Source: an archaeon BMS3Bbin15 (GTDB taxonomy: Archaea; Hydrothermarchaeota; Hydrothermarchaeia; Hydrothermarchaeales; BMS3B). Taken from it: a DNA stretch of 47,530 nt. The notes beneath the pieces were generated by a model, which had not been told where the DNA came from, did not search any database, and saw only the letters and a program-made list of their open reading frames with translations. Positions 4,893 to 47,530 of this stretch are shown here, piece by piece. The translations under genes and the position numbers were made by a program. The DNA lies in NCBI GenBank assembly GCA_002897955.1, contig BDTY01000064.1, positions 1 to 47,530 of the forward strand. The letters are read 5' to 3'. Position 1 is the stretch's first letter. Every line of letters starts with the position of its first letter.

Positions 4893-4900
4893 AATTAAAA

Positions 4901-5214
4901 GCGGGCACGCCTGAGAGTGAAAGCTCCTCCCTGAATTCCGCACATCCAGGCATACCTCCACTCCGCAACCCTGCAAGCACCAAGCGTCCAGCCTACCGCT
5001 GTTCTCTTCCGAGCCTCACGGGGTTCAGCTGGCAGAGGCAGTTATACCAACCCTTCCGGAGAGGTACTCTGCCACCGTCGGTCCTGCAGGACGAAGCTTC
5101 TACAGCATGCCTGGAGGCCTCCTCCAGTTTGAATACCTTGCCTCTCAGGCTTCGACCCCGGCATATCGACGATTTCAGGTTACAGGGGACGCCGAACCCC
5201 CCGGTCTAGCCCGC
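4901..5214 (-). ncRNA. ffs: Archaeal signal recognition particle (7S) RNA
   Basis: Read on the minus strand, the RNA opens GCGGGCTAGACCGGGGGGTT and continues through the conserved archaeal 5' domain (GGCGTCCCCTGTAACC, GTCGATATGCCGGGG). The last bases, GCCCGC, pair with the first six to form helix 1, fixing the ends at 5214 and 4901 (314 nt, usual archaeal size). Helix 8 is clear around 4992-5022: GTGAGGCTCGGAAGAGAACA carries the GGAA tetraloop (5007-5010), followed by the asymmetric-loop side. This is the SRP54 binding site. A second loop, CCGGAAGGG, near 5052-5060 fits the SRP19-binding helix 6. A T run follows the 3' end. A 106-codon frame on the opposite strand is an artefact of this RNA. 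Confidence 0.95.
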
Positions 5215-5257
5215 AGATGAACTAAGAGAAAGTTAACATAGTCATTAAAAGATAAAC

Positions 5258-29130: not shown

Positions 29131-30945
29131 ATGGTAAAACAAGTATCAAAAGAATCATTAGATATTACAAAAGAGAAGATAGCACAATTAAAAAAATTAT
29201 TTCCTGAAGTAATCAGTGAAGGAAAAATAGACGTTGAGAAACTACAAAGGACACTAGCAGATGACGTTGATGGAAAAGATGAGAAGTATAGCTTCAATTG
29301 GGCAGGAAGAAAAGACACATTCAAAAGTATTCAAACAACAGCTAAAGGGACATTAGTTCCTGCAGAAAAAGACTCTGTTAATTGGGATAAAACTGAAAAC
29401 CTATTTATTGAAGGAGATAATTTAGAAGTATTAAAATTATTGCAAAAAGCATATTTTGAAAAGATTAAATTAATCTATATTGATCCACCATATAATACAG
29501 GAAAAGATTTCATTTACAAAGATAATTTCAAACAAAGTATTAAATCATATTTTGAACAAACTAGACAATCAGAAAATGGCATTAAATTAACTACAAACCC
29601 CGAAACTAGTGGCAGATATCATTCTGACTGGATATCTATGATGTACCCTAGATTATTTATTGCTAGAAATTTATTGAGAAACGATGGGGTAATTATTGTA
29701 TCAATCGATGACAATGAAGTTCATAATTTGAGATTAATATTAAATGAAATATTTGGAGAAGAAAATTTTATTGCAGATGTTATTTGGAATTCTACAAAAT
29801 CTGTAACTAACACAGCCATAGTGTCTGTTGCCCACACACATAATTTAGTATATTTAAAAAATAAAGACTATTTTGTTGTGCATAGAACTGAATTCAGACT
29901 ACCTGAATCAGGAGAAGGATTCTCCAATCCAGATCATGACCCTAGAGGTCCTTGGAAAGCTGATCCATTTCAGGTAGGGGGGTGGAGACCTAATCAACAA
30001 TATGAGGTCAAAAATCCAAAAACAGGAAAAATATACAAACCAAATCCTGGATGTAGTTGGAAAAATGACTACAAAAAATTCCAAGAATTATTAAAAGACA
30101 ATAGGATAGTGTTTGGCGCTACTGGAGAGGCAGGCCCACAGAGAAAGAGATTTCTTTCTGAAGCTACTGAAAGGGGCAGGGTAGTGACTACCATCTGGAA
30201 TGATGTTGATACAACTACTAATGCCACCCAATATCTAAAAAAAATGTTTGGATTTAGCGCTTTTGATAACCCAAAACCTGTTAATCTAATTCAAAGATTT
30301 ATTCAATTAGGTACTGTTGATGAGGGGGTTATTATGGACTTCTTTTCAGGGTCAGGCACAACAGCTGAAGCTGTATTACAGCAAAATATTGAAGATGGAG
30401 GTACAAGAACATTTATTTGTGTTCAATTACCTGAACCAACAAATAAAGAATCCGAGGCCAGAAAGGAAGGCTTTGAGAAAATATCGGATATAGCAAAAAA
30501 AAGGATTCGTAAAGTGATATCTCGTATAAATAAAGAAAAAAATCAAAAATTTGGTTTTAAAGTATTTGAATTGAAATCATCTAATTATAGACAGTGGGAA
30601 AATTATGACGGAAAAGACATAACAGAACTATCTAAACAAATGAAGTTATTTACAGACCCATTAATTAAAAGTTACAAAGAAATTGATGTAATTTATGAGT
30701 GTATTATAAAAGAAGGATTGAGTCTAAATGCTAAAATAGACAAATTGGCAATAAAGAACAACTCAATCTATAAAGTAAGCGATCAGGATTTTAGTTTCTA
30801 TATAACATTAGATAGAGACTTAAAAATGGAAAGTCTAAACAAATTATATCTAAAAAAGAGCGATGTGCTAATTTGTCTTGACCAAGCATTATCAGACAGT
30901 GGAAAAACCAATCTAGCTGTTCAGTGTAATTTAAAAACAATATAG
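29131..30945 (+). CDS. Type III-like DNA methyltransferase (Mod), no Res partner
   Basis: A 604-residue adenine-type methyltransferase. DPPYNTGKDF (motif IV) is near residue 118, and the SAM-binding DFFSGSGTT (motif I) comes later, near residue 402, i.e. the beta-class order used by type III Mod subunits. The N-terminal LFPEVISEGKIDVEKL and FIEGDNLEVLKLLQKAY are typical. The C-terminal domain is complete, ending NLAVQCNLKTI. No Res helicase-nuclease follows; the next sequence is an IS-like remnant. TTA, AAA and GAA codons dominate, unlike neighbouring genes, so it was probably acquired. It may act as an orphan epigenetic or protective methylase. The start overlaps the preceding stop (TAATG). 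Confidence 0.92.
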   Translation: MVKQVSKESLDITKEKIAQLKKLFPEVISEGKIDVEKLQRTLADDVDGKDEKYSFNWAGRKDTFKSIQTTAKGTLVPAEKDSVNWDKTENLFIEGDNLEVLKLLQKAYFEKIKLIYIDPPYNTGKDFIYKDNFKQSIKSYFEQTRQSENGIKLTTNPETSGRYHSDWISMMYPRLFIARNLLRNDGVIIVSIDDNEVHNLRLILNEIFGEENFIADVIWNSTKSVTNTAIVSVAHTHNLVYLKNKDYFVVHRTEFRLPESGEGFSNPDHDPRGPWKADPFQVGGWRPNQQYEVKNPKTGKIYKPNPGCSWKNDYKKFQELLKDNRIVFGATGEAGPQRKRFLSEATERGRVVTTIWNDVDTTTNATQYLKKMFGFSAFDNPKPVNLIQRFIQLGTVDEGVIMDFFSGSGTTAEAVLQQNIEDGGTRTFICVQLPEPTNKESEARKEGFEKISDIAKKRIRKVISRINKEKNQKFGFKVFELKSSNYRQWENYDGKDITELSKQMKLFTDPLIKSYKEIDVIYECIIKEGLSLNAKIDKLAIKNNSIYKVSDQDFSFYITLDRDLKMESLNKLYLKKSDVLICLDQALSDSGKTNLAVQCNLKTI

Positions 30946-34481: not shown

Positions 34482-35125
34482 GGTTTTCCCCCTTCGTATT
34501 CTTCAGTATAGAATTTTCTCAGTTCTGCCACATCATCTTCGCTAATAACATTGATTTTCCCGAGAATACTGCCAAAAATAGTTGCTTCGGCTGCTCTTTC
34601 AACCACAACACACACTTTGAAGGCTTCTTTCAGACTTCTGCCTACACATACAGTACCATGATTGGCAAGGAAAACAGCTTTTTTATTTCCAAGAGTTTTG
34701 ACAGCTTTTTCTGCAAGTTCCCATGTACCGGCCTTTGTATAGGCTGTGCAGTCAACACTTCCGCCCACCACCTGTGCGAGCTCTTCAAGGACAGGAGGTA
34801 AAGATTTACCGGCTATGGCAAAGGCACAGGCAAAGGTTGAATGAGTATGCACTACAGCTTTGACCTCTTTTTTATTTCTGTAGATTTCAGCGTGAAGTTT
34901 TAGCTCGGTGGATGGCTTTCTTCTGCCTTCAAAGCTGAGGTCTGAATTTACTTCAACTATATCCTCAGGCTGAAGGGTATCATAGTCAATCCCGCTGGGA
35001 GTTATAAAAAACTTATCTTCATCAATTCTTCCACTGACATTTCCCCAGGTAGAAGTAGTCAAACCCAGAACTGAAAGTTTTCTGGCTGTCTTAATTATTT
35101 CCTTTCTGAGTTCTGGATTCTGCAT
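34478..35125 (-). CDS. Class II aldolase/adducin family, fuculose-phosphate aldolase-like
   Basis: A 215-residue zinc aldolase. It has LGLTTSTWGNVSGRIDEDKF and FITPSGIDYD near the N-terminus, AVVHTHSTFACAFA with the HxH zinc ligands, and a third histidine in VFLANHGTVCVGRS. Family members cleave fuculose-1-phosphate to dihydroxyacetone phosphate and lactaldehyde. In archaea this has been linked to lactate formation for coenzyme F420, which is one possible role here. It is first in the aldolase-ppcA-cupin operon. Confidence 0.88.
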   Translation of the reverse strand: MQNPELRKEIIKTARKLSVLGLTTSTWGNVSGRIDEDKFFITPSGIDYDTLQPEDIVEVNSDLSFEGRRKPSTELKLHAEIYRNKKEVKAVVHTHSTFACAFAIAGKSLPPVLEELAQVVGGSVDCTAYTKAGTWELAEKAVKTLGNKKAVFLANHGTVCVGRSLKEAFKVCVVVERAAEATIFGSILGKINVISEDDVAELRKFYTEEYEGGKP

Positions 35126-35241
35126 AGCTTATATAAAAATTACAACAATTAAAAATATTTCAGACATTTGCCTGTGATTATAACCAAATCGAGAAGTGTT
35201 TCAGATTTCAGGATAGCCCATAATATTCTGATTGCCGTAAT

Positions 35242-35251
35242 CTTTATATAT
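35242..35251 (+). promoter_or_regulatory. TATA box of the proteasome beta gene
   Basis: The CTTTATATAT tract lies about 60 bases before the ATG at 35307. It predicts a leader of about 35 bases that carries the GGAGGT ribosome site at 35295-35300. Confidence 0.5.
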
Positions 35252-35306
35252 GATAAATCTGATAGAGAGAGGTAACTAATTTTACTACTTTTTTGGAGGT
35301 TGTTTA

Positions 35307-35945
35307 ATGGAAGCTGTTGAAAAAGTTAAAGAATATCTGAAAGGAACCACAACTATAGGCCTGGCTGCCAGTGAAGGTGTGGTCCTCGTTAGTGATAAGA
35401 GAGCAACCATGGGTACGTTAATTGCTCATAAAGTTGTAAACAAAAGTTTTATAATAGATAAACATGTTGCTGCTACTGTAGCCGGGAGTGTTGGAGACGC
35501 CCAGGCTTTGATAAGATGGATGCGCTCAGAAGCAAGGCTGTATAGAATGCGGAAGGGTGAAGAAATCAGTATTGGAGCTCTCTCAAATCTTATGGGAAAT
35601 GTACTTTTCTCCCAGCGTTATTATCCGTATATTGTCCAGCTGGTTATTGGCGGCGTTGATAAGACAGGTTCAAAGGTATTTTCTCTTGACCCTCTGGGTA
35701 GCAGTATTGAAGATAAAGTTGTTTCAACAGGTTCAGGCTCGCCTTATGCCTATGGTGTCCTTGAGGATGCCTACAGAGAGGATATGGATGTAGAGGAGAC
35801 AGTTAGAATAGGGGTAAGAGCAATGAAGGCAGCCCTTCAGAGAGATGCTATGACAGGTAATGGGATTGATGTAATTAGAATAACCAAGGAAGGGGCTGTT
35901 AAACTTTCCAAAGAGGAAACTGACAAAATTATAGATTCTCTTTAA
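35307..35945 (+). CDS. psmB: 20S proteasome beta subunit
   Basis: The catalytic subunit of the proteasome. A 13-residue propeptide ends at Gly13, and the nucleophile Thr14 starts TTTIGLAASEGVVLVSDKRA, with the conserved Asp and Lys of the active site. VAGSVGDAQALIRWMRSEA and STGSGSPYAYGVLEDAY are typical. The 212-residue precursor has the usual size. The alpha subunit is not in the window. It is followed 40 bases later by aCPSF1, giving a protein- and RNA-turnover pair. Confidence 0.97.
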   Translation: MEAVEKVKEYLKGTTTIGLAASEGVVLVSDKRATMGTLIAHKVVNKSFIIDKHVAATVAGSVGDAQALIRWMRSEARLYRMRKGEEISIGALSNLMGNVLFSQRYYPYIVQLVIGGVDKTGSKVFSLDPLGSSIEDKVVSTGSGSPYAYGVLEDAYREDMDVEETVRIGVRAMKAALQRDAMTGNGIDVIRITKEGAVKLSKEETDKIIDSL

Positions 35946-35985
35946 CTTTTCTTTTATACTTTTAACCTATTATGGGGTAACATTA

Positions 35986-37899
35986 ATGGTCATGAGAGAT
36001 ATTCTAGAGGAAATAAGGCATGCAGTTCGTGAGCACATACCCGAAGCTGCACTTGTCACCCGGGTTGACTTTGAGGGCAGTGAGGTTGTGCTGTATTCGA
36101 AAAATCCCAGCGCCCTTACAGTAAATAGCGATGCAGTAAAGGAGCTGGCGAGGGTAATAAGAAAACGTGTTATTGTCAGACCTGACCCGAGTGCTCTACT
36201 TCAGGGAGAGGATGCAAAAAAAAGAATCCTTGAAATAGTTCCGTCAGATGCAGGAATAGTTGATATTAAATTTGACATTGTTTTTGGCGAGGTTATTATT
36301 GAAGCAGAGAAGCCAGGTCTTGTAATAGGTAAGTCTGGCTCGACTCTGAATCAGATAAGAGCAGCTATTGGCTGGGTACCAAAGGTAATAAGAGCTCCAC
36401 CTATACCCTCAAAGATAATAAAAAGTGTTAGACAGCAGCTTCTTGCAAGCAGTGAAAAGAGAAAGGAAATCCTAGTAAAAATAGGCAGGAAGCTTCACAG
36501 AAGTACAAGGGACAGAGAGACAAGCTGGATAAGAGTATCAGCTATGGGGGGATTCAGAGAGGTGGGAAGGACAAGTATGTTAATTCAAACTCCTGAGAGC
36601 AGAGTGCTTGTTGACTGCGGTGTTAATGTTGCTGCAGGGGACAGCGAGAATGCTTATCCTTATCTTAATATACCTGAATTCAATATAGAGCAGCTTGATG
36701 CTGTTGTAATAACTCATGCTCACCTGGATCACTGCGGTTTTGTGCCTTATCTCTACTATATGGGCTATGAAGGACCGATTTACTGTACACCTCCAACGAG
36801 AGACCTTATGTTTCTTCTGCACTGGGATTTTCTTGATGTTGTTGAGAGGGAGGGTAGAGAGCTGCCTTATCCGAGGAAATATGTAAAGGAAATTCTCAAA
36901 TATGCCATTCCTGTTGAATATGGTGAGGTTACAGATATAGCCCCTGACATAAGGCTTACGTTGCACAACGCAGGGCATATTCTAGGTTCTTCTATTGCTC
37001 ACTTCCATATAGGTGAGGGACTTTACAACCTCGCGTATACAGGAGATATAAAATTTGAGCGTTCAAGGCTTCTTCAGCCTGCAAATGTTAGATTTCCAAG
37101 GCTTGAAACTCTAATTATGGAGAGTACCTATGGAGGAAGAAGAGATGTTCAACCTTCAAGAAAGAAAGCAGAAGAATTTATGGTAAAGGTTATAAAGGAG
37201 ACCATACAGAGGGGCGGCAAGGCTCTCATACCTGTTTTCAGTGTGGGCAGAGCGCAGGAACTGATGCTTGTTCTTGAGGATTATGCCAACGAGGGAATTC
37301 TTGAGGATATTCCTGTTTACCTTGACGGGATGATATGGGAAGCAACAAGTATTCATACCACATATCCCGAATATCTGAATATCGGGCTGAGGAATGAGAT
37401 ATTTCATAAAGGGCATAATCCCTTCATAAGTGAAATCTTTAATAGAGTTACCGGTACTGCAAATCGTAAGGAGATTATTGAAGGTGACCCGAGTATTATT
37501 CTCGCAACTTCAGGCATGCTGGCAGGTGGGCCTAGTGTTGAGTACCTCAGGAAGCTGGGTGACGACAGTAAAAACTCAATAATCTTTGTGGGATATCAGG
37601 CTGAAGGCAGCCTTGGCAGGAGGATTCAGAAGGGCTGGAAGGAAGTGCCTATGAAAGAAAACGGCAAGACAAGGGTTGTGAAGGTGAATATGCAGGTGCA
37701 CACTGTCGAGGGCTTTTCAGGGCACAGTGATAGAAATCAGCTTCTCAATTATATCAAAAGGCTGAATCCAAAGCCTGAAAGGATAGTTACATGTCACGGT
37801 GAGGAGAGTAAATGCATAGAGCTTGCTTCTGCTTTACATAAGATTAGCAGGTCAGAGACAAGGGCTGCTATGAATCTTGAAGCTTTCAGGGTGAAGTGA
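35986..37899 (+). CDS. aCPSF1 (KH-domain CPSF-like ribonuclease)
   Basis: A beta-CASP metallo-beta-lactamase nuclease that cleaves RNA 3' ends and drives transcription termination in archaea (also called FttA). The N-terminal 160 residues hold two KH-like domains, with VIGKSGSTLNQIRAAIG near residue 108. The lactamase motif THAHLDHCGF lies near residue 243. Later motifs are HNAGHILGSS, LIMESTYGGR, VFSVGRAQELML and SGHSDRNQL, plus VTCHGEESKC near the end. It has 637 residues, the normal length. Confidence 0.96.
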   Translation: MVMRDILEEIRHAVREHIPEAALVTRVDFEGSEVVLYSKNPSALTVNSDAVKELARVIRKRVIVRPDPSALLQGEDAKKRILEIVPSDAGIVDIKFDIVFGEVIIEAEKPGLVIGKSGSTLNQIRAAIGWVPKVIRAPPIPSKIIKSVRQQLLASSEKRKEILVKIGRKLHRSTRDRETSWIRVSAMGGFREVGRTSMLIQTPESRVLVDCGVNVAAGDSENAYPYLNIPEFNIEQLDAVVITHAHLDHCGFVPYLYYMGYEGPIYCTPPTRDLMFLLHWDFLDVVEREGRELPYPRKYVKEILKYAIPVEYGEVTDIAPDIRLTLHNAGHILGSSIAHFHIGEGLYNLAYTGDIKFERSRLLQPANVRFPRLETLIMESTYGGRRDVQPSRKKAEEFMVKVIKETIQRGGKALIPVFSVGRAQELMLVLEDYANEGILEDIPVYLDGMIWEATSIHTTYPEYLNIGLRNEIFHKGHNPFISEIFNRVTGTANRKEIIEGDPSIILATSGMLAGGPSVEYLRKLGDDSKNSIIFVGYQAEGSLGRRIQKGWKEVPMKENGKTRVVKVNMQVHTVEGFSGHSDRNQLLNYIKRLNPKPERIVTCHGEESKCIELASALHKISRSETRAAMNLEAFRVK

Positions 37900-37952
37900 A
37901 GTTATCTTGATATCCTATATGATTTTACAGAAACTAGAGGAGGGAGAAGGTT

Positions 37953-38786
37953 ATGACTGAGAAGGTGCTGGTGAAGAAAGTTGAGGATTACACTCAGGCT
38001 GGAAAGTTTGTCAGGGAGGCTTTTGAAACCTTTGGATTTGAGGAAGAAGATGAGGTAATAATTAAGCCCAATTTCTTAAAATATAATGACCCGTTGATGG
38101 GGTGCATAACCCATCCTTCAGTGGTGAGTTCAGCAGTGGAGGCTGCCCGGGATTCTGGTCTTAAACCTTTAATTGCGGAAGGAGGTTTTGGAAAGGATTC
38201 GGCAGATAAATGTTTTTCATCCTTTAATCTGGGAGATGGAGTTGATTCTGTAAATCTCAACAGGGAGGAGTTTGTAAAAATTGATGTGGGGGGAAAGGCT
38301 TTAAAAGAAGTCAAGGTGGCAAAATCAGCTTTGAAAGCCTTGAATAAACCTTTTGTCAGTCTGCCAAAGTTCAAGGTCCATCATCTTACCGGGGTGACAC
38401 TTGGGATAAAAAACAATATGGGATTTTTAAAGAAACCGGCAGTTTATATGCATCTTAATATCCATCAAAAGCTTGTGGATTTACTCGGGGTATTCAATCC
38501 TTCTCTTGTCATAATAGACGGCGTGGTGGGCGGTGACCTTTCGGAGTCCAGGACAAAACCTATACCCCATGGTGTAATGGTTGCCAGCAATAATGTAGTT
38601 GCTGCCGATGCAGTTGCAGCAGAGCTCATGGGCTTTATGCCTGAAAAAATAGAACACATAAGGCTTGCGGCAGAGGTGTTCGGGGTGGACCTGAGTAAAA
38701 TAGAGACAAATGTAGACCTAAAAAGATTAAAAAGGAATTATTCACTCTCTCTTTTTAGCAGGGTCCTGGGCAAAATTGGAATATGA
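37953..38786 (+). CDS. DUF362 protein
   Basis: A 277-residue DUF362 domain: VIIKPNFLKYNDPLMGCITH, LIAEGGFGKDSADKCF, SLPKFKVHHLTGVTLGIKNN, and a C-terminal NVVAADAVAAELMGF. Many relatives carry a C-terminal ferredoxin domain; here that is absent and the protein ends in a basic tail. The family function is poorly known. AGGAGGGAG lies just before the ATG. It is the last core-type gene before the accessory island. Confidence 0.88.
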   Translation: MTEKVLVKKVEDYTQAGKFVREAFETFGFEEEDEVIIKPNFLKYNDPLMGCITHPSVVSSAVEAARDSGLKPLIAEGGFGKDSADKCFSSFNLGDGVDSVNLNREEFVKIDVGGKALKEVKVAKSALKALNKPFVSLPKFKVHHLTGVTLGIKNNMGFLKKPAVYMHLNIHQKLVDLLGVFNPSLVIIDGVVGGDLSESRTKPIPHGVMVASNNVVAADAVAAELMGFMPEKIEHIRLAAEVFGVDLSKIETNVDLKRLKRNYSLSLFSRVLGKIGI

Positions 38787-38875
38787 TGGGAAGTCAATTT
38801 TTACTTTCGAAACTTTTAGGGTCTCTGGATATATATTAGAAACCATTATATTTTTGAATTATCTATCCTGTTTTC

Positions 38876-39067
38876 TTACATCTCCCAGTATTTTACTAGA
38901 AACCTCACAAATTCTTTTCTCTCCCTCAGATAGTCAGCCGGACTTAAAAACATGCCAATAACGAGGGAATAATAGGCATAGATTGCAACCTTATTGATGA
39001 GGGCTTCCTTTCTGCTGTGCAAGAAGTATTGCCGCAGGTACAAGGGAGCCATTGCCACAAGTTTCAC
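38876..39067 (-). CDS. Short hypothetical frame, possibly a truncated gene tail
   Basis: A 63-codon frame starts at GTG: KLVAMAPLYLRQYFLHSRKE, then ALINKVAIYAYYSLVIGMFL, then SPADYLRERKEFVRFLVKYW. The composition is protein-like, with one hydrophobic helix between basic and aromatic segments. It resembles the end of a membrane-associated enzyme such as a family 2 glycosyltransferase, but this is a weak resemblance. No ribosome site is visible, and the frame opens upstream only to a nearby stop. It lies exactly at the left edge of the island, so a gene cut by the island's arrival is plausible. The remainder of 38787-39096 shows nothing else. Confidence 0.35.
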   Translation of the reverse strand: MKLVAMAPLYLRQYFLHSRKEALINKVAIYAYYSLVIGMFLSPADYLRERKEFVRFLVKYWEM

Positions 39068-39096
39068 TACCTCGATATAATCTACATTAGTCTATC

Positions 39097-40389
39097 TCAT
39101 AAGTTTTCAGAATCGCTAAGAATTCCCATTTCATATCCCAAGGAATAGACCTGCTTTCTATCCCTCTTACCACGAACAATTAATTCTGGTCGTTTGGATA
39201 AATCTGATAATATTTTCTGTAAGGTGGACCTGGTTACGCCACAAGCCCTTTGTAACTTTTTATCACTGGGAGAAGCTGATTTGATAGTCGAAAAAGCTCT
39301 AATGACTTTCTGTTCGGAGGTATCTAATCCATTGAATGTATTTCTGGAAATTTTAATACAGATGGGTTCGATATCAGAAAGAGAGTATGTTCTAATTGGA
39401 TAATCTTCAAGAAATATCTCTTCAAATACATTATTAAGAAAGTTAAATGCCCACCTGATGTCCCCACCGCATTTCGAGAACATATACTCTAAAACGTCGT
39501 CTCCCAAAGGAGGGGCATAATTCTCTTTAATCGCCGAGTATTTCAGGCGGCGGTCGACAGCAAATTGAAATTCATCAAGAGACAGAGGAGATAGTTCTAT
39601 GCTTTCTCCAAAAACTGAACGCAACCTACCGCTACTTGTAAGACGGCTTTTCAGTTGAAGGTCGCCAATAAAGATGAGAATAAACTCCGAAAAGATAAGG
39701 CCTCTCAGCATTTCTATGAGTGTGGTAATTTTTCCCTGGTCATTGACTTTTTCTTTTTCAAGGTTGTTTAAGGTAATCAATATTCTCGCCTTTAGGTCCT
39801 CTCTTACGATGTTGCCGATTTTTATCAGTCTGTTAATTATGAAATCTTGTGTCAGGAGGTTCATAGGCTGGACGGACGTGCTGGATGTAGACTCTCGTTG
39901 TCCATGAATAATGGGTATATTTGAACCATAAGAGTTACCTTTAGCGTCACCTTTCGTGACGATGTTTTCTATTTCAAAAAGAGTTTTTTTGTTCTTTTCT
40001 TTTAAGTATTCACGGTAAGGCTTAATGCTGTCCAATGTCACTCTGAGAATATCAATCAGGAACTCCCTTGGACTTTCTGTTTCTACTACCGAGATGGTGT
40101 CTGTTATGATGAAGTTGAAAACATCTCTGTTTTCTTCTACTTTTATCTCGCTAAAACATCGATTTTTAAAGGTTGATTTACCTACACCGAAACTTCCCTC
40201 AATACAAAAAGCATGGGTGCCAGATACGAATTTCTTGAAAAAATTCCTTATCTCCTTTTCCCTACCGACAAAAAGCGAATCAAATTCCTTCTTCTTTTCC
40301 AGGGGGTGATGTAAATAGGGATTTCTTGAATACCCCCACTTTTCCATGTCTTCAAATCCCTTCTTAACATAGTCTTTTCCAGAAGTCAT
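39097..40389 (-). CDS. P-loop ATPase with C-terminal helix-turn-helix
   Basis: A 430-residue protein. After an N-terminal FDSLFVGREKEIRNFFKK box, Walker A is GSFGVGKST (residues 65-73). The strand where Walker B is expected reads RILITLNNLEKEK (202-214), so the usual Asp is Asn or Thr; ATP hydrolysis may be weak. LILIFIGDLQLKSRL and SPLSLDEFQFAVDRRL fit the sensor 1 and lid regions of Orc/Cdc6- or STAND-like ATPases. The final 75 residues hold an HTH (LQRACGVTRSTLQKILSDLS). AGGAGATG precedes the ATG. It is divergent from the HD-domain gene and is the left arm of the accessory island. It is probably a sensor or regulator; the target is unknown. Confidence 0.7.
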   Translation of the reverse strand: MTSGKDYVKKGFEDMEKWGYSRNPYLHHPLEKKKEFDSLFVGREKEIRNFFKKFVSGTHAFCIEGSFGVGKSTFKNRCFSEIKVEENRDVFNFIITDTISVVETESPREFLIDILRVTLDSIKPYREYLKEKNKKTLFEIENIVTKGDAKGNSYGSNIPIIHGQRESTSSTSVQPMNLLTQDFIINRLIKIGNIVREDLKARILITLNNLEKEKVNDQGKITTLIEMLRGLIFSEFILIFIGDLQLKSRLTSSGRLRSVFGESIELSPLSLDEFQFAVDRRLKYSAIKENYAPPLGDDVLEYMFSKCGGDIRWAFNFLNNVFEEIFLEDYPIRTYSLSDIEPICIKISRNTFNGLDTSEQKVIRAFSTIKSASPSDKKLQRACGVTRSTLQKILSDLSKRPELIVRGKRDRKQVYSLGYEMGILSDSENL

Positions 40390-40435
40390 CAGACCATCTC
40401 CTGTTGCTTTTTAATGGGGGAACATTTTCTCACAC

Positions 40436-40660
40436 TTCAACGTTTCGTCCAACATTTTAAAAGTTTCAACGTAGTAGTTACCTATGGTGCACCTATCTTT
40501 TCAGTCTGTCCCGCCTGTTATTTAACTTTTTTGGTGGGGCTTTGAAAATATTTAAAATCGTGTTGAACACCTCTCAACTTTTCAACATATAAATCAAATT
40601 ATTCGAAATCACATATAAACTATACTTCAATTTAACGATAATTGTCCAATAATTGTTGGA
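40436..40660. promoter_or_regulatory. Divergent control region with iterated TTCAAC-like hexamers
   Basis: The 327-bp gap between the ATPase and HD genes contains repeated hexamers of the form TYCAAY or its complement: TTCAAC 40436-40441, TCCAAC 40448-40453, TTCAAC 40465-40470, GTTGAA 40562-40567, CTCAAC 40573-40578, TTCAAC 40581-40586, TTCAAT 40626-40631, TCCAAT 40645-40650 and GTTGGA 40655-40660. Two dyads stand out: TGTTGAA-N13-TTCAACA (40561-40587) and TCCAA-N6-TTGGA (40645-40660). An operator array bound by one of the island HTH proteins is likely. No gene is seen in the gap. Confidence 0.5.
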
Positions 40661-40685
40661 AATAATCATCTTTTTAAACACAAAG

Positions 40686-40693
40686 TATATAAA
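40686..40693 (+). promoter_or_regulatory. TATA box of the HD-domain gene, leaderless start
   Basis: TATATAAA lies about 27 bases before the ATG at 40717 and no ribosome site is present. The mRNA probably starts at or next to the ATG. The downstream gene is then translated by coupling. Confidence 0.55.
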
Positions 40694-40716
40694 CCTTTAG
40701 TTCTAATATATTTTAC

Positions 40717-42288
40717 ATGTATCGAGTTCGAGACCCTCTCCATGGCGATGTATCCTTAACGCAGGAAGAATATAGACTCATCAATACGTATGAAATGCAA
40801 AGGCTTTCAAGAGTCAAGCAGTTGGGGCTCTCTTACCTGGTTTACCCTGGGGCAACTCACACCCGTTTTGAGCATAGCATAGGAGTACGTTGGCTTGTCG
40901 AGAATATCATCGTTAAATCAAAACTTCCCATATCGCCAGACAAAAGAAGGATTTTATATCTAGCATCTCTTCTTCATGACGTATCGCACTCCTGCTTTTC
41001 TCATAGGGTTGAAGAGAGTATTCGTGTGATACCTCCCCATGATAAGATTAGGGATGTTATACTTACAGGAAACATTAAGGAAAAGCTCGTTGACCACAAG
41101 ATACTAAGGTCCTCTGAAATAGAAAATACAAAGTTCATTAGTGATGTGTTAAACCGTGAGACTATTGAAGAAATACGTAATGTCTATGATGGCACATACC
41201 AGGAACTTAAGGATATCTTGGATAACAACATCGATGCTGACAATTTGGATTATATCTTGAGAGATGGATTTCATCTCGGTCTTAATGCAGTGGACTATGA
41301 TGATAGAATATACTCTGCTTTTAGGTTAGGGATGGACCAAACTGGTAGAATGCGAACTGTTTTTGCAAATGAAAGGACAATATTAGAGTCTATTGGAATT
41401 ATATTAAATGCTAGGTGGTATCTTTATAGAGTTGCCTATCTTCATCATACCATCATGATTGCCGATGTTATGCTCTCTAAAGCAATTAAACAATGGCTCA
41501 ACGAAGAAAATGGCGATATTCTATTCCTGGTTGGCGATGAGGAACTTCTTTCGATGCTGAAAGGAGATAATGAAGTTTCCAGAGATTGCGTCAACCGCTT
41601 GTTTTCCAGGAGGCTATACAAGAGAACATATATGTTGGATCATTCCTCTCCTTTACGAGCAAAGCAAAAGGCCAAGGATATACGTGATAATCCTGTAGAA
41701 AAGGGAGAATTTGAGAACTACGTTGATGAGGATATTTCGATAATATTTCCCAGAAAGGACCCGTGGAAAGAATTTGGCAATATATTGGTGGATGAGGATA
41801 ACCCAAGACCTATAAAATCAGAGTTCTACAGCGAAATCAGTCTATTAAAGGAAAAATATGACAACCTCTGGAGATTCCTTATCGCTACTCCAAAAGAAGA
41901 TTATAACACAAGAAAATCTATTTTTGATAAATGTGTTAAATATTTTGGCAATTCCGGTATTTACCATCCTAAAAAAGTACTTATCAAAGAAAAAAATTCG
42001 GAGTTATTTGAAAACCTTAAAACAGTTTTGAAGAAAATATCAAAAGAAAGGGAAGCATCCATCAGGGTTCTAAGAGAACTGTGTGGTGAAAGGGAGGTTA
42101 TATCAGGAGATATCGAAACAAAGACAGGACTTTCAAGGTCCACTGTTTCCCAGTATCTCGGCTATCTCAGAGACATTTTGGGAGAACATGAGGTTCCGAT
42201 TATTTCAGTAAGGCTGGATAAAAAGAGAAAATTCTGGTGGATAAAAGACCCTCGTTTTAGAGAGTATATCATGGAGAGTACTGCATGA
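40717..42288 (+). CDS. SAMHD1-like HD phosphohydrolase with C-terminal HTH
   Basis: A 523-residue protein that begins with the dNTPase-type signature MYRVRDPLHGDVSLTQEE. The HD metal site is complete: His53 in HTRFEHSIG, His87-Asp88 in LLHDVSHSCFSH, and Asp175 in NIDADNLDYILRD. SAMHD1 and related proteins hydrolyse dNTPs to nucleoside and triphosphate, and some act in phage defence. Residues about 440-523 carry an HTH (IETKTGLSRSTVSQYLGYL) and a winged tail, unusual for this family and suggesting DNA binding or autoregulation. CGT/CGA arginine codons are commoner than in core genes. It ends in an ATGA overlap with the next gene. The substrate is unproven. Confidence 0.82.
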   Translation: MYRVRDPLHGDVSLTQEEYRLINTYEMQRLSRVKQLGLSYLVYPGATHTRFEHSIGVRWLVENIIVKSKLPISPDKRRILYLASLLHDVSHSCFSHRVEESIRVIPPHDKIRDVILTGNIKEKLVDHKILRSSEIENTKFISDVLNRETIEEIRNVYDGTYQELKDILDNNIDADNLDYILRDGFHLGLNAVDYDDRIYSAFRLGMDQTGRMRTVFANERTILESIGIILNARWYLYRVAYLHHTIMIADVMLSKAIKQWLNEENGDILFLVGDEELLSMLKGDNEVSRDCVNRLFSRRLYKRTYMLDHSSPLRAKQKAKDIRDNPVEKGEFENYVDEDISIIFPRKDPWKEFGNILVDEDNPRPIKSEFYSEISLLKEKYDNLWRFLIATPKEDYNTRKSIFDKCVKYFGNSGIYHPKKVLIKEKNSELFENLKTVLKKISKEREASIRVLRELCGEREVISGDIETKTGLSRSTVSQYLGYLRDILGEHEVPIISVRLDKKRKFWWIKDPRFREYIMESTA

Positions 42289-43526
42289 AGGAACTAAGTA
42301 AAAGATATGTTAAAATCAAAGATTATGAGAAGAGATATAAAGGTAGGAGATTCCAAGTCTCAGACCTTGATGAGCTTTATGCTCTTATCTGGTCGTGCCT
42401 GCAAAGCTCCTTTAGAAATTTTGATATACCAAACACTATAATGGCAAAGTCCGTTATCATAGCATCAAAGACATTTAATATAGAAACTCCAAGTACATCT
42501 CCTATCCTTCCTACTATCCATCTCTACGGTCCAGAGCTTATTGGGGATAAAGAAATCTTGTTATATAGTCCATACTTAAAAAGAGCGGGCGGAGACATGA
42601 TAGGCAGCGTGCAGCCAGACAAACATGTCATCCCAACAGATAATCGTGCTATTGCCAGGATTCGAGAGAAGTATGATAGTTATTTAAATCCTTTAGAGGG
42701 TATATTGGAACATATTTTAGGGAGTTTAAGTGACATGATAGACTTAACCTATGATGTCGTTTTTGAACGCCCCTATTTTACTGGAAGCCATAATATCATG
42801 ACTCCTGAGGAAGCTATGAAAAACATTGTATGGAACACCCTCTGCAGGAATATGCTGAGAGTCAAAAGAACATTGACAAGGCGTGGCAAAAGAAATTTTG
42901 AGATTCCAGATAATACAGTCAACTTTTCAATTTCAAATCATGGTGGTAATATAGAATGCCTAAAAGATGGTACAAAGAATGATATGGTCATTTTTCAGGG
43001 CATTTATCTTATGAATGCCATGGGTCTGCCGACTGGCAATTCCAAAGATGGTCCAGGAGAGTACCTTTATCGTCTTCTCTCTTGCAGGTATTTTAAGGAT
43101 TTCGGGGGATATTATAAGGAAAAAAAGGAACTTGATGGCAATAAAAGGGGATTTGATAGGGGTAACTTCTCAGGCAGTGATTATAGTAAGTACGATAGAA
43201 TCCTCAAAAATAAGGAGGCTGCTGTTTCAATAGCGAGAGATAAAGCGAATGCAACTAAAAAGAATGTTAAATTCGTAGTAGACTCCCTTTTACAAAACCT
43301 CATACAATGCGGTGCAGTCTATAAGAAGGGGAATACCTTCCTCGTAAATGGTTCTTATGTGAATATTGACGGTGTTCTATTTGACATGCCTTCGAAAGAT
43401 ATTATCAACGGATGGATGCGAAATATCTGGAACCTTAATGCCTATCTGAAGAAATTAAGAAGGGAATTTTCAAGAAGTCAACACAGAGCTAATTCTTCGC
43501 GAGACACATATTACTTCGTAAAGTAA
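42285..43526 (+). CDS. Unrecognised 413-residue protein coupled to the HD phosphohydrolase
   Basis: I cannot assign this to a family. It is soluble and basic, with a mixed fold. Notable stretches are FQVSDLDELYALIWSCLQSS, HLYGPELIGDKEILLYSPYL, MTPEEAMKNIVWNTLCRNML, NFSISNHGGNIECLKDGTKN and a charged region FGGYYKEKKELDGNKRGFDR. It ends with a basic tail LKKLRREFSRSQHRANSSRD. No HTH, nuclease or membrane signature is evident. The start codon sits inside the HD gene stop (ATGA), so the two proteins are made together and may form a complex. It is followed by a decayed IS1-like copy. Confidence 0.6.
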   Translation: MKELSKRYVKIKDYEKRYKGRRFQVSDLDELYALIWSCLQSSFRNFDIPNTIMAKSVIIASKTFNIETPSTSPILPTIHLYGPELIGDKEILLYSPYLKRAGGDMIGSVQPDKHVIPTDNRAIARIREKYDSYLNPLEGILEHILGSLSDMIDLTYDVVFERPYFTGSHNIMTPEEAMKNIVWNTLCRNMLRVKRTLTRRGKRNFEIPDNTVNFSISNHGGNIECLKDGTKNDMVIFQGIYLMNAMGLPTGNSKDGPGEYLYRLLSCRYFKDFGGYYKEKKELDGNKRGFDRGNFSGSDYSKYDRILKNKEAAVSIARDKANATKKNVKFVVDSLLQNLIQCGAVYKKGNTFLVNGSYVNIDGVLFDMPSKDIINGWMRNIWNLNAYLKKLRREFSRSQHRANSSRDTYYFVK

Positions 43527-43579: not shown

Positions 43580-44125
43580 TAGTGTCTTAATTTAGAATAG
43601 TTAATTGGGAATAAAAAAATCCATGCCAGCTCCACCTATGATATATCCAGTTTTCTAGCATCGCCGGTGAAATGTTTCTTTTTAGTTCGTTGATGAAGTT
43701 CCAGTAGAGTTGAAACTGTTCAATTGCGCACTCCAGTCTCAGTTTATATTTTGAGAAACACTTTGTCTTCCACACTAATCTATCAATCCTCTCCCGTAAT
43801 ATTCCATTAAAGTTCTCGATGTTGGTGGTCTCTATGTCCTCCGGTTTTGGGTAGCTGTAGACCTTTCTTTTCTTTTTGTCTATAATTCAACCTTTTTCTT
43901 TGATTTTTATGAGCTATCCATAATTGATGCAGGTGTCTACATAGTAATCTGGTAGGACATGAGTATAATCGTCATTTCGAGCTGTGAATACCTCTATCTC
44001 CATGCATGACCTTCCTCAAACATAGTTTGGCTATCACGCTCAACTTCCTTCTGTTTTTTTAACCATGCTCCACATATCATCACACTCAAATGAGATAAGT
44101 CAGATTACAAATCTTTTTTCTGGTT
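43580..44125 (-). pseudogene. Decayed IS1-like transposase copy
   Basis: The stretch is clearly homologous to the element at 46.7 kb. The minus-strand frame at 43587-43775 (KTKCFSKYKLRLECAIEQFQ, then LYWNFINELKRNISPAMLEN) matches the end of the other transposase. GTTGATGAAGTTCCAGTA corresponds to GTTGATGAAATCCCAGTA there. Several frameshifts, a stop, a shortened A run (seven) and an internal deletion of roughly 130 bases after about 43990 make it inactive. A region resembling the other copy's left end lies near 43578. It flanks the ATPase-HD island, consistent with IS-rich turnover at this site. Confidence 0.82.
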
Positions 44126-44201: not shown

Positions 44202-45167
44202 CTATTTTACAAATATTCTTCTGGCCAGAATATTAGAATAAATCTTGAAATCGTCTGTGTCAATATCCTTTTTCTCTCTGATAAACTGGGTAATCATCGA
44301 ATCATACACATCGGCAAGATATACTGCCGCAGCTTCGGGAAACATTGGTTCCATGGGTGAGCCGTTAATCTTCTCCCCGTGATGACTCAGTATGATATGC
44401 AGAAGCTTCATGGAAGTGGTTTCAGGTATATCAGCCTCAGCCAAGTGGTCCTTCACTATTTCATAGCTAAGTGCAACGTGCCCTACCAGCATACCCCTCT
44501 CTGTATATTCTATGGTATTTGTAATTTTAATCTCTTCGATTTTGCCAATATCATGCAAAAGAGCACCTGCAATTACAATATCCCTGTCCAGGGAAGAATG
44601 CAGCCGGCATGCAGTCCTGGCAAATAGTGCAACTCCCAGCGTATGTTCTAAAAGACCACCGATGCAGGCATGGTGATATCTTTTCGCTGCAGGTATTTTT
44701 TTAAACTTTGACCATATCACAGGGTCTTTAAATATACTCTCCAGTAAAAACCTGATTTTTTCATCTTTTACGGATTCTACAAGGGAAAAAAGCTTTTCTT
44801 CCATTTCCCCGATATCCTGATTGCTCGATGAAATAAATATTGATAGGTCATATTCGTCATCCAGTGCCTTTCTGGCAGTATTTTCAGGAGGATTGATATT
44901 TACCTGGATTTTTTCGTTATAGAGTACAGAGACAGCCTTGATATATACAATATCTCCTTTTGAAAACCCGTTAAAGACCTCTTCAACCTGCTTCCTGTCA
45001 GGACCACCCCAGTAATTTACCATCACCTCTCCGCTCTTGTCGGAAATTCCGAACATGAATCTGTAGCCATTCTTATACTCTTTAATTTCGTGTTTGTATT
45101 CCACAACAAAAAAGCCCTCTATAGGTTCTCTGTCCTTGAAATTTTTTATGAGTTTCTGTTTTTCCAA
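44202..45167 (-). CDS. OB-fold plus HD-domain protein, YhaM-type 3'-5' exoribonuclease
   Basis: A 321-residue protein. Residues about 10-115 form an OB fold (FFVVEYKHEIKEYKNGYRFM, GDIVYIKAVSVLYNEKIQVN). Residues 160-300 form an HD domain with the full set HHACIGGLLEHTLGVA, AGALLHDIGKIEE, GMLVGHVALSYEI and HIILSHHGEKING, ending PEAAAVYLADVYDSMI. This is the architecture of the bacterial YhaM/CBF1 exoribonucleases. The start is TTG at 45167, backed by GGGGAGGTGAT. A perfect 12-bp palindrome CTTTTGCAAAAG (45197-45208) lies upstream. Confidence 0.88.
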   Translation of the reverse strand: MEKQKLIKNFKDREPIEGFFVVEYKHEIKEYKNGYRFMFGISDKSGEVMVNYWGGPDRKQVEEVFNGFSKGDIVYIKAVSVLYNEKIQVNINPPENTARKALDDEYDLSIFISSSNQDIGEMEEKLFSLVESVKDEKIRFLLESIFKDPVIWSKFKKIPAAKRYHHACIGGLLEHTLGVALFARTACRLHSSLDRDIVIAGALLHDIGKIEEIKITNTIEYTERGMLVGHVALSYEIVKDHLAEADIPETTSMKLLHIILSHHGEKINGSPMEPMFPEAAAVYLADVYDSMITQFIREKKDIDTDDFKIYSNILARRIFVK

Positions 45168-46635: not shown

Positions 46636-46746
46636 CTAATACCCCCGATATTTTTACTTATCTCAGGTCATTTTTGAATTTAGCATGTATAATCTTATAT
46701 GGATTTTTAAAGATGGATCCGGTCAGATTTTTGGTACTGTCCCATT

Positions 46747-47337
46747 TTATACCGCATAATGATACATTAAAAAATCGTGCCATGTCCATAGGTGGTCTGT
46801 TACCTCCTCTAACATTGCCGGAGAAGTTTTTCTTTCGAACTCGTTGATGAAATCCCAGTAAAACTGGAAGAGGTGGATGGCACAACATAATCTACTCTTA
46901 TATTTCGAGAAACATTTGCTCCTTCGGACAAGCCTACCGCACCGTTCCCGCAGTATACCATTGAAGTTCTTGATATCCGTGGTTTCTATATCCACCGGGT
47001 CCGGGTTGCCGTATATCGTTCGCTTCTCCTTGCCGATCAACTTTCCCTTCTCTTTGATCTTTATGAGCTGCCCATAGCTGATGCAAGTGTATGCGTAGTA
47101 TTTTGCAAGGACATATGTGTAATCGTCGTTTCCATCGGTGAAAATATCTATCTTCTTGTCTGGGGATGGAAGTTTAGTTCTGCGATACAGCTGGTCAACC
47201 ATGTTCTTACAAGTTTGTTGTGTCCATTTTCCAACTGCAAACGCCACAAAAAAGTAGGTGTATCGCTTTATGCATGCGTATATCCAGGCATCACCTTCTT
47301 CAGACCGAGTTGGGCTCTTACGCTCAACTTTCTTCTG
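46747..47337 (-). CDS. insB: IS1-like transposase, InsB' part (read by -1 frameshift)
   Basis: The catalytic half of an IS1-type DDE transposase. In the -1 frame after the A8 run it reads QKKVERKSPTRSEEGDAWIY and continues CIKRYTYFFVAFAVGKW. It then has IDIFTDGNDDYTYVL (second Asp) and IKNFNGILRERCGRLVRRSK with the Glu region, and ends HDFLMYHYAV. No stop interrupts it, so this copy may still be active. It is expressed only as a fusion with InsA through slippage, although an internal ATG at 47247 exists. Confidence 0.8.
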   Translation of the reverse strand, partial: QKKVERKSPTRSEEGDAWIYACIKRYTYFFVAFAVGKWTQQTCKNMVDQLYRRTKLPSPDKKIDIFTDGNDDYTYVLAKYYAYTCISYGQLIKIKEKGKLIGKEKRTIYGNPDPVDIETTDIKNFNGILRERCGRLVRRSKCFSKYKSRLCCAIHLFQFYWDFINEFERKTSPAMLEEVTDHLWTWHDFLMYHYAV

Positions 47338-47530
47338 TTTTTTTTAACCATGCTCCACAACTCATTGCATTCAAATAGAGTAAGTCCCACTTTCTTTATG
47401 AGATAATCGTTCATCTGCTCTGCATGTTCAGCCAGGTCTTCCAGCAATCTGCCAATGGTATCACGATGATGTCCAGTAATCCGTTCAATACTTCGTATCC
47501 CATTCTTCTCTACCAGATGCTTGCATATGT
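47268..47530 (-). CDS. insA: IS1-like InsA, C-terminal part (partial)
   Basis: The visible frame reads ICKHLVEKNGIRSIERITGH, then HRDTIGRLLEDLAEHAEQMN, then ECNELWSMVKK, and ends with TAA at 47268-47270. The RSIERITGHHRDTIGRLL segment is the DNA-binding HTH of IS1 InsA. The zinc-finger N-terminus lies beyond the window. The slippery site A_AAA_AAC lies within eight A (minus strand of 47338-47345), about 23 codons before the InsA stop, exactly the IS1 arrangement for -1 frameshifting. Confidence 0.75.
   Translation of the reverse strand, partial: ICKHLVEKNGIRSIERITGHHRDTIGRLLEDLAEHAEQMNDYLIKKVGLTLFECNELWSMVKKNRRKLSVRAQLGLKKVMPGYTHA

What the first reader, a model, noticed from the sequence alone, without database searches (positions are those of the whole stretch)
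39097..43526. Candidate undescribed module: HTH ATPase facing a SAMHD1-like HD protein coupled to an unknown partner
Three genes form a compact, divergently arranged unit. It comprises a P-loop ATPase with a degenerate Walker B and C-terminal HTH, an HD phosphohydrolase with an intact dNTPase metal site and its own C-terminal HTH, and a 413-residue protein coupled by an ATGA overlap. Arginine codons shift to CGN compared with the AGA/AGG use of core genes. A decayed IS1 copy lies on the right and a gene-tail-like frame on the left. dNTPases of the HD type are known antiviral effectors, so a nucleotide-depletion defence or toxin-like module is plausible. It is also possible that it is a regulatory island with another role.
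Basis: partly seen in the sequence, partly recalled or inferred. Interest (0 to 1): 0.75.

Follow-up and report, generated by a model that had tools for sequence, protein, structure and literature searches.

The report
Mobile archaeal dNTPase-ATPase gene cassette
A vent archaeon carries a recently exchanged three-gene cassette: an enzyme that looks able to break down DNA building blocks, a facing DNA-binding ATPase, and a protein with no relative found in the collections searched; virus defence is plausible but unproven.

Summary
The three genes are real and correctly placed. The genome shares its genus with the Hydrothermarchaeota MAG SZUA-158.

Gene A (39097-40389, -) is an AAA_16/Orc1-Cdc6-like ATPase with a winged helix. 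Its odd Walker B (NNLE) is a family trait, not decay. Gene B (40717-42288, +) is a SAMHD1/EF1143-type HD phosphohydrolase with all metal ligands intact, fused to a winged-helix tail. That tail was found only in the sister species. Gene C (42285-43526, +) is an orphan.

The cassette is foreign and mobile:
- Synteny with the sister breaks at gene A's stop codon, and the sister has its own insertion sequence at both edges of the slot.
- The sister's B tail sits beside a different gene, with C cut after about 11 codons.
- The shared B tail has dS 0.02, against 0.16-0.18 in flanking core genes.
- Arg CGN codons make up 28%, against 11% in core genes.

The three genes together were found nowhere else. 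No PADLOC model names them as a system, and A's distant relatives stand alone. B's substrate and C's role are unknown; Clover (dNTPase plus partner enzyme) is only a functional analogue.

Best reading: a mobile nucleotide-depletion defence or toxin-like cassette, about 40% likely. Novelty: new variant of a known kind.

The parts
38876..39067 (-). 63-aa gene-tail-like frame left of the cassette; part of the ancestral flank, also present in sister G001:C105, similar pieces at G000:C14 and C82
39086..39103 (.). left synteny breakpoint: 93% identity with sister G001:C105 ends here, at gene A's stop codon; the sister continues into its own insertion sequence
39097..40389 (-). gene A: 430-aa AAA_16/Orc1-Cdc6-like P-loop ATPase with C-terminal winged helix
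40174..40197 (-). gene A Walker A, GSFGVGKS (residues 65-72)
   Evidence: sequence
39142..39318 (-). gene A C-terminal winged helix (about residues 358-416)
40390..40716 (.). divergent intergenic region; CAAC/GTTG occurs 8 times (3.0 expected) and TTCAAC 4 times (0.4 expected), a candidate operator or iteron array
40717..42288 (+). gene B: 523-aa HD phosphohydrolase of the SAMHD1/EF1143 superfamily (HD, HD_assoc_2, winged-helix tail)
40864..41241 (+). gene B HD catalytic core with R50, H53, H87, D88, H91, H96, D173, D175
41401..41910 (+). gene B HD_assoc_2 region (residues 229-398)
   Evidence: E 4.1e-13
42061..42174 (+). gene B C-terminal ArsR/MarR-like helix-turn-helix (residues 449-486)
42071..42317 (+). 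only stretch of the cassette found in the sister (G001:C188, 96% DNA identity): B tail plus first ~11 codons of C
42285..43526 (+). gene C: 413-aa orphan protein, start codon overlaps B's stop (ATGA)
43580..44101 (-). decayed IS1-family element forming the right flank; second copy at 46734-47386; part of it shared with sister G001:C133

Best explanation
A horizontally exchanged accessory cassette of about 4.4 kb sits in a variable slot of a Hydrothermarchaeota genome. Proposed mechanism (inferred): B is the effector, a metal-dependent HD triphosphohydrolase that depletes dNTPs (or a related nucleotide) and so stops the replication of an invading virus or plasmid. C, translated with B, is its partner: an inhibitor, activator or sensor that keeps the toxic activity in check. 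A is a DNA-binding ATPase, transcribed divergently; it would either repress both promoters through the CAAC repeats between them, or sense the replication state and release or switch on B and C. The winged helix fused to B would tie the enzyme to its own promoter or to DNA. Shown: gene structures, intact HD active site, B-C coupling, foreign codon usage, synteny break, and exchange of B after the species split. Inferred: dNTP as substrate, toxicity, the roles of A and C, and the antiviral purpose.
For: HD fold and SAMHD1/EF1143 relatives (PDB 2hek E 1.6e-28, 9mr6 E 8e-25, human SAMHD1 E 1.7e-21, EF1143 E 4.5e-16). All metal and catalytic HD residues are kept. B is a long-branch outsider in the HD tree, not a duplicate of the genome's own ~398-aa HD gene. 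Left synteny ends at A's stop, and the sister has a private insertion sequence (11 ends there, 0 in this genome) at both edges of the slot. The sister's B tail sits beside a VapBC pair that lies elsewhere in this genome. B tail dS is 0.022 against 0.155-0.181 in flanking genes. CGN arginine codons are enriched in all three genes. Known precedent: HD dNTPases paired with a regulatory partner defend bacteria against phage (Clover, PMC12265719).
Against: No defence model matches beyond HTH level and a weak dGTPase hit. The trio is not found together elsewhere, and A's relatives stand alone. C has no identifiable domain, and its single-sequence model is useless (pLDDT 34). Two dNTP-contact positions of SAMHD1 differ in B (K312 to N, Q375 to L; positions from my own knowledge of SAMHD1, read from the alignment), so the substrate may not be a dNTP. 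In the sister C is truncated after B, so C is not always kept with B. There is no dense defence island.
Confidence: 0.4

Rival explanations
1. Remnant of an integrated plasmid or virus. A is an Orc1/Cdc6-like replication initiator acting on the AT-rich repeat region beside it. B adjusts nucleotide pools or removes modified or competing nucleotides. C is a further element-encoded protein.
For: Two of five A-family members match the orc1/cdc6 model TIGR02928 (best 2e-6) and RFC models. CAAC-type repeats are clustered in the divergent AT-rich region. HD relatives occur on plasmid and viral records.
Against: No integrase, terminal repeat, partition gene or structural gene within the 4.4 kb. No viral or plasmid contig carries A or C. 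A's relatives sit singly among ordinary chromosomal genes.
Confidence: 0.2
2. Unrelated accessory genes that piled up in one variable slot. B and C are a small coupled unit; A is an independent stand-alone ATPase that landed next to them.
For: A's relatives occur alone. The sister keeps only a piece of B, and no A was found in its 96% complete assembly.
Against: All three genes share the same codon bias and the same variable slot, with divergent promoters around one repeat-bearing intergenic region.
Confidence: 0.25
3. Regulatory island: B is an HD enzyme that degrades a signalling nucleotide, with its own winged helix as regulator. A and C set expression. The role is metabolic or stress response, not defence.
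For: HTH-type domains on A and B. SAMHD1 base and phosphate contacts altered in B. Most B relatives are ordinary chromosomal archaeal HD proteins.
Against: Foreign, recently exchanged and absent from all 22 other genomes of the phylum except one fragment, which fits a dispensable or selfish unit better.
Confidence: 0.15

Closest known systems
SAMHD1 / EF1143-type HD dNTP triphosphohydrolases (PDB 6tx0, 2o6i, 9mr6)
   Same: HD fold, all metal ligands, catalytic histidines, phosphate-binding arginine, HD_assoc_2 region
   Different: Residues at the SAMHD1 GTP-activation site (D137, R145) and at K312 and Q375 differ; no SAM domain; winged-helix tail instead; only distant sequence similarity
Clover (CloA dNTPase with CloB nucleotidyltransferase; PMC12265719)
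   Same: HD-superfamily enzyme encoded with a partner gene, in accessory DNA
   Different: B shows no significant match to CloA/dGTPase-type structures and only a weak dGTPase model match (E 0.0019); C shows no convincing GS...DxD nucleotidyltransferase motif; Clover has no divergent ATPase
Stand-alone anti-phage dGTPase (PADLOC dGTPase)
   Same: HD superfamily; plausible nucleotide depletion
   Different: B matches that model only weakly (E 0.0019 over residues 18-102); here there are two extra genes and an HTH fusion
Archaeal Orc1/Cdc6 and AAA_16/ATPase_2 P-loop proteins
   Same: N-terminal AAA-type ATPase followed by a winged helix, 430 aa
   Different: Walker B is NNLE rather than DE; window protein itself reaches no curated cut-off
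Ordinary archaeal chromosomal HD protein (G000:C19, 398 aa)
   Same: Same HD superfamily, 33% identity
   Different: Vertically inherited, no winged-helix tail, different neighbours

Membership tests
SAMHD1-superfamily HD phosphohydrolase (B) | HD domain with complete metal-ligand set H...HD...D | tested here: met
   H53, H87, D88, D175 invariant in 50 aligned homologues; Pfam HD 24.6 bits (cut-off 22) and HD_assoc_2 49.7 bits (cut-off 23.1)
SAMHD1-superfamily HD phosphohydrolase (B) | Catalytic histidines and phosphate-binding arginine (SAMHD1 H210, H215, R164) | tested here: met
   H91, H96 and R50 invariant; importance of R164 stated in PMC12042053
SAMHD1 proper | Guanine-specific allosteric site (D137, Q142, R145; residue roles from my own knowledge) | tested here: not met
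   Aligned residues in B are N, Q, S (alignment)
SAMHD1 proper | dNTP hydrolysis | not testable with these tools
   K312 to N and Q375 to L make the substrate uncertain
SAMHD1 proper | Second-metal histidine H233 | tested here: inconclusive
   Region not reliably aligned in B; H108 lies nearby
Clover defence system | CloA-type dGTPase effector | tested here: not met
   PADLOC dGTPase E 0.0019 over residues 18-102; NCBIfam dGTP_triPase 12.7 bits against cut-off 152; no dGTPase-type chain among PDB hits at E 0.1
Clover defence system | CloB Pol-beta nucleotidyltransferase with GS...[DE]h[DE] | tested here: not met
   Only chance-level pattern matches in C, no convincing motif; no Pfam family
Orc1/Cdc6 initiator family (A) | AAA ATPase with Walker A and C-terminal winged helix | tested here: met
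   Walker A present; winged helix by family profile
Orc1/Cdc6 initiator family (A) | Score above a curated Orc1/Cdc6 model for the window protein | tested here: not met
   TIGR02928 matches two of five family members (best 2e-6) but not the window protein
Known anti-phage defence systems (PADLOC-DB 2.0) | Model matches to two or more components | tested here: not met
   A and C none; B weak dGTPase and HTH only

The most novel reading that the evidence does not exclude
A previously undescribed archaeal nucleotide-depletion defence system: a dNTPase effector fused to its own DNA-binding winged helix, translated with a partner from a new protein family, and switched by a divergently encoded Orc1/Cdc6-like ATPase.
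Probability: 0.25. Interest if true: 0.7.

Novelty: new variant of a known kind. Interest (0 to 1): 0.42.

Why it matters
HD dNTPases defend animals and bacteria against viruses, but I know of no characterised archaeal example, and the literature searches run here found none. A mobile archaeal cassette with an intact HD active site, an HTH fusion and an operonic partner would make that link testable, and it supplies a new orphan protein family (gene C).

Tried and rejected
- Gene C as a Pol-beta nucleotidyltransferase (a Clover CloB analogue): no convincing motif.
- Gene C relatives: none in 394 archaeal genomes apart from a 51-residue match at E 8e-4 in a broken frame, judged chance; none in GTDB contigs, plasmids, phages or IMG/VR by the methods used. 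The weak PDB hit to an iron-transport protein (E 0.014) was judged chance.
- Structure models of C and A from single sequences: pLDDT 34 and 38, so no fold search was run.
- B as a recent duplicate of the genome's ordinary HD gene: rejected by the tree and ~30% identity (B's exact place is unsure because of long branches).
- A as a KAP, NACHT, STAND or BREX ATPase: no score reaches a curated cut-off for the window protein.
- The left flank as an insertion-sequence end in this genome: the 13/17 resemblance at 39088 is matched elsewhere in the window, so it is not evidence.
- A-family and B relatives in viral contigs: A none; B 16 loci, none with a match to B's winged-helix tail, A or C nearby.

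Full report
The window is a complete 47,530-base contig (G000:C64) of a 1.74-Mb, 98.6% complete archaeal genome bin. A genome of the same genus is SZUA-158, described as Hydrothermarchaeota (PMC6946796). Most of the window is core genes at 40-44% GC.

Genes. The three reported ORFs exist as stated. Dinucleotide shuffles of the 4.4 kb gave no stop-free run above 186 codons. Gene C starts inside B's stop codon (ATGA at 42285).

Gene A is a P-loop ATPase (weak Pfam KAP_NTPase and AAA_16). Distant full-length relatives (21-26% identity, 417-438 aa) occur in other archaea. Aligned with them, Walker A is kept and the NNL of the supposed degenerate Walker B is invariant. The family profile matches winged-helix regulators and AAA clamp-loader-like chains in the PDB, and two of five members match the Orc1/Cdc6 model. 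These relatives lie alone among ordinary genes, with no HD gene beside them.

Gene B has Pfam HD and HD_assoc_2 above cut-off. Its best solved relatives are 2hek, fungal and human SAMHD1, and EF1143. All metal ligands and catalytic residues are invariant. Against SAMHD1 (alignment; residue roles from my own knowledge except those in PMC12042053), B keeps R164, H167, H206, D207, H210, H215, D309, D311, Y315, R366 and Y374 equivalents. It differs at K312 (N), Q375 (L), D137 (N) and R145 (S). So a triphosphohydrolase site is likely, SAMHD1-style GTP activation is not, and dNTP specificity is open. The last ~120 residues resemble ArsR/MarR helix-turn-helix domains, weakly. No listed match among 394 archaeal genomes reaches this tail except the sister's fragment. 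In a tree of 44 archaeal HD proteins B is a long-branch outsider, not a copy of the genome's own HD gene on C19.

Gene C has no relative in 394 archaeal genomes (one 51-residue match in a broken frame was judged chance), GTDB contigs (degenerate 8-mer scan), IMG/VR, plasmids or phages, and no domain. Its single-sequence AlphaFold model is uninformative.

Mobility. Sister contig C105 matches window 34482-39102 at 93% and then enters an insertion sequence whose ends (GAGCCTATCGCA...) occur 11 times in the sister and not at all here. Sister contig C133 matches 46658-44157 and the IS1 remnant down to 43678, then meets the opposite end type of the same insertion sequence. The simplest reading is that the sister has this insertion sequence where this genome has the cassette. 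The contigs are not joined, so other DNA between two copies cannot be excluded.

The sister's only cassette DNA is a 247-bp piece on C188: the B tail plus about 11 codons of C, followed by a VapBC pair that in this genome lies on C82. In that B tail there is one synonymous change in 46 sites (dS 0.022) and six non-synonymous ones (dN 0.036). Flanking core genes have dS 0.155-0.181. About eight synonymous changes would be expected; the Poisson chance of one or fewer is roughly 0.002-0.007 (my arithmetic). So B moved between these lineages, or from a common donor, after the species split. The non-synonymous excess fits relaxed or diversifying selection, but numbers are small, and C188 is a short MAG contig. 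Arginine CGN codons are enriched in all three genes (28/100 against 68/613, p = 2.5e-5).

Regulatory region. The 327-bp divergent region has CAAC/GTTG 8 times (3.0 expected, p 0.006) and TTCAAC 4 times (0.4 expected, p 0.002), found after scanning many words, so this is a lead only.

Function. No PADLOC model covers A or C, and B matches dGTPase weakly. The precedent for HD dNTPase plus partner is Clover (PMC12265719), but B and C both fail its defining features. A side observation supports the idea that HD enzymes of this superfamily travel with small control partners: in eight of sixteen IMG/VR loci (six distinct sequences), an HD gene sits next to a ~170-184 aa protein resembling the C-terminal part of the DarG antitoxin. 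No similarity of that partner to C was seen.

Verdict. The anatomy and recent exchange are well supported; the defence or toxin-like role is the best single reading at about 0.4, ahead of chance assembly (0.25), a replicon remnant (0.2) and a regulatory island (0.15). The trio as a conserved system is not supported.

Noticed in passing
L149:5611-7910, L150:345-2125, L152:5875-7837 (L153 same), L154:5326-7969, L164:2006-3918, L159:5433-7455 (L160 same): In IMG/VR viral contigs a SAMHD1-like HD gene is repeatedly adjacent to a 170-184 aa protein (motif LQK...YGPYS) resembling the C-terminal part of the DarG antitoxin (best E 2.6e-9), with no Pfam family: a possible recurring HD toxin-antitoxin-like pair.
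   Followed up: partly
window 29131-30945 (+): Type III restriction-modification methyltransferase (PADLOC MTase_III, E 1e-194) in a low-GC (31%) stretch, with no room for a restriction subunit beside it: orphan or split system.
   Followed up: no
L029:473-1218 and L136:4926-5671: A VapBC-like pair is 96% identical between the two sister species but sits in different contexts, beside the B tail in one and elsewhere in the other: another exchanged unit.
   Followed up: partly
L141, L144 and L138-L148: Insertion sequence with ends GAGCCTATCGCATAATT / GAGCCTATCGCAAAATT, 11 ends in SZUA-158, many near contig ends, none in this genome.
   Followed up: partly
window 44202-45167 (-): OB-fold plus HD protein resembling the YhaM 3'-5' exoribonuclease (NCBIfam E 1e-35, below cut-off); conserved flank gene, not part of the cassette.
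   Followed up: no
L062:1-2551: 850-aa HD protein in a genome of the same class (G020), the row that groups with B in the tree, though by long branches.
   Followed up: no
G422:C50, C59, C63 and G423:C82: A-family ATPase fragments lie at contig ends, several per genome, suggesting multicopy genes that break assemblies.
   Followed up: no
window 4899-5216 (-): Archaeal signal recognition particle RNA (Rfam RF01857, 219 bits), an ordinary core gene.
   Followed up: no
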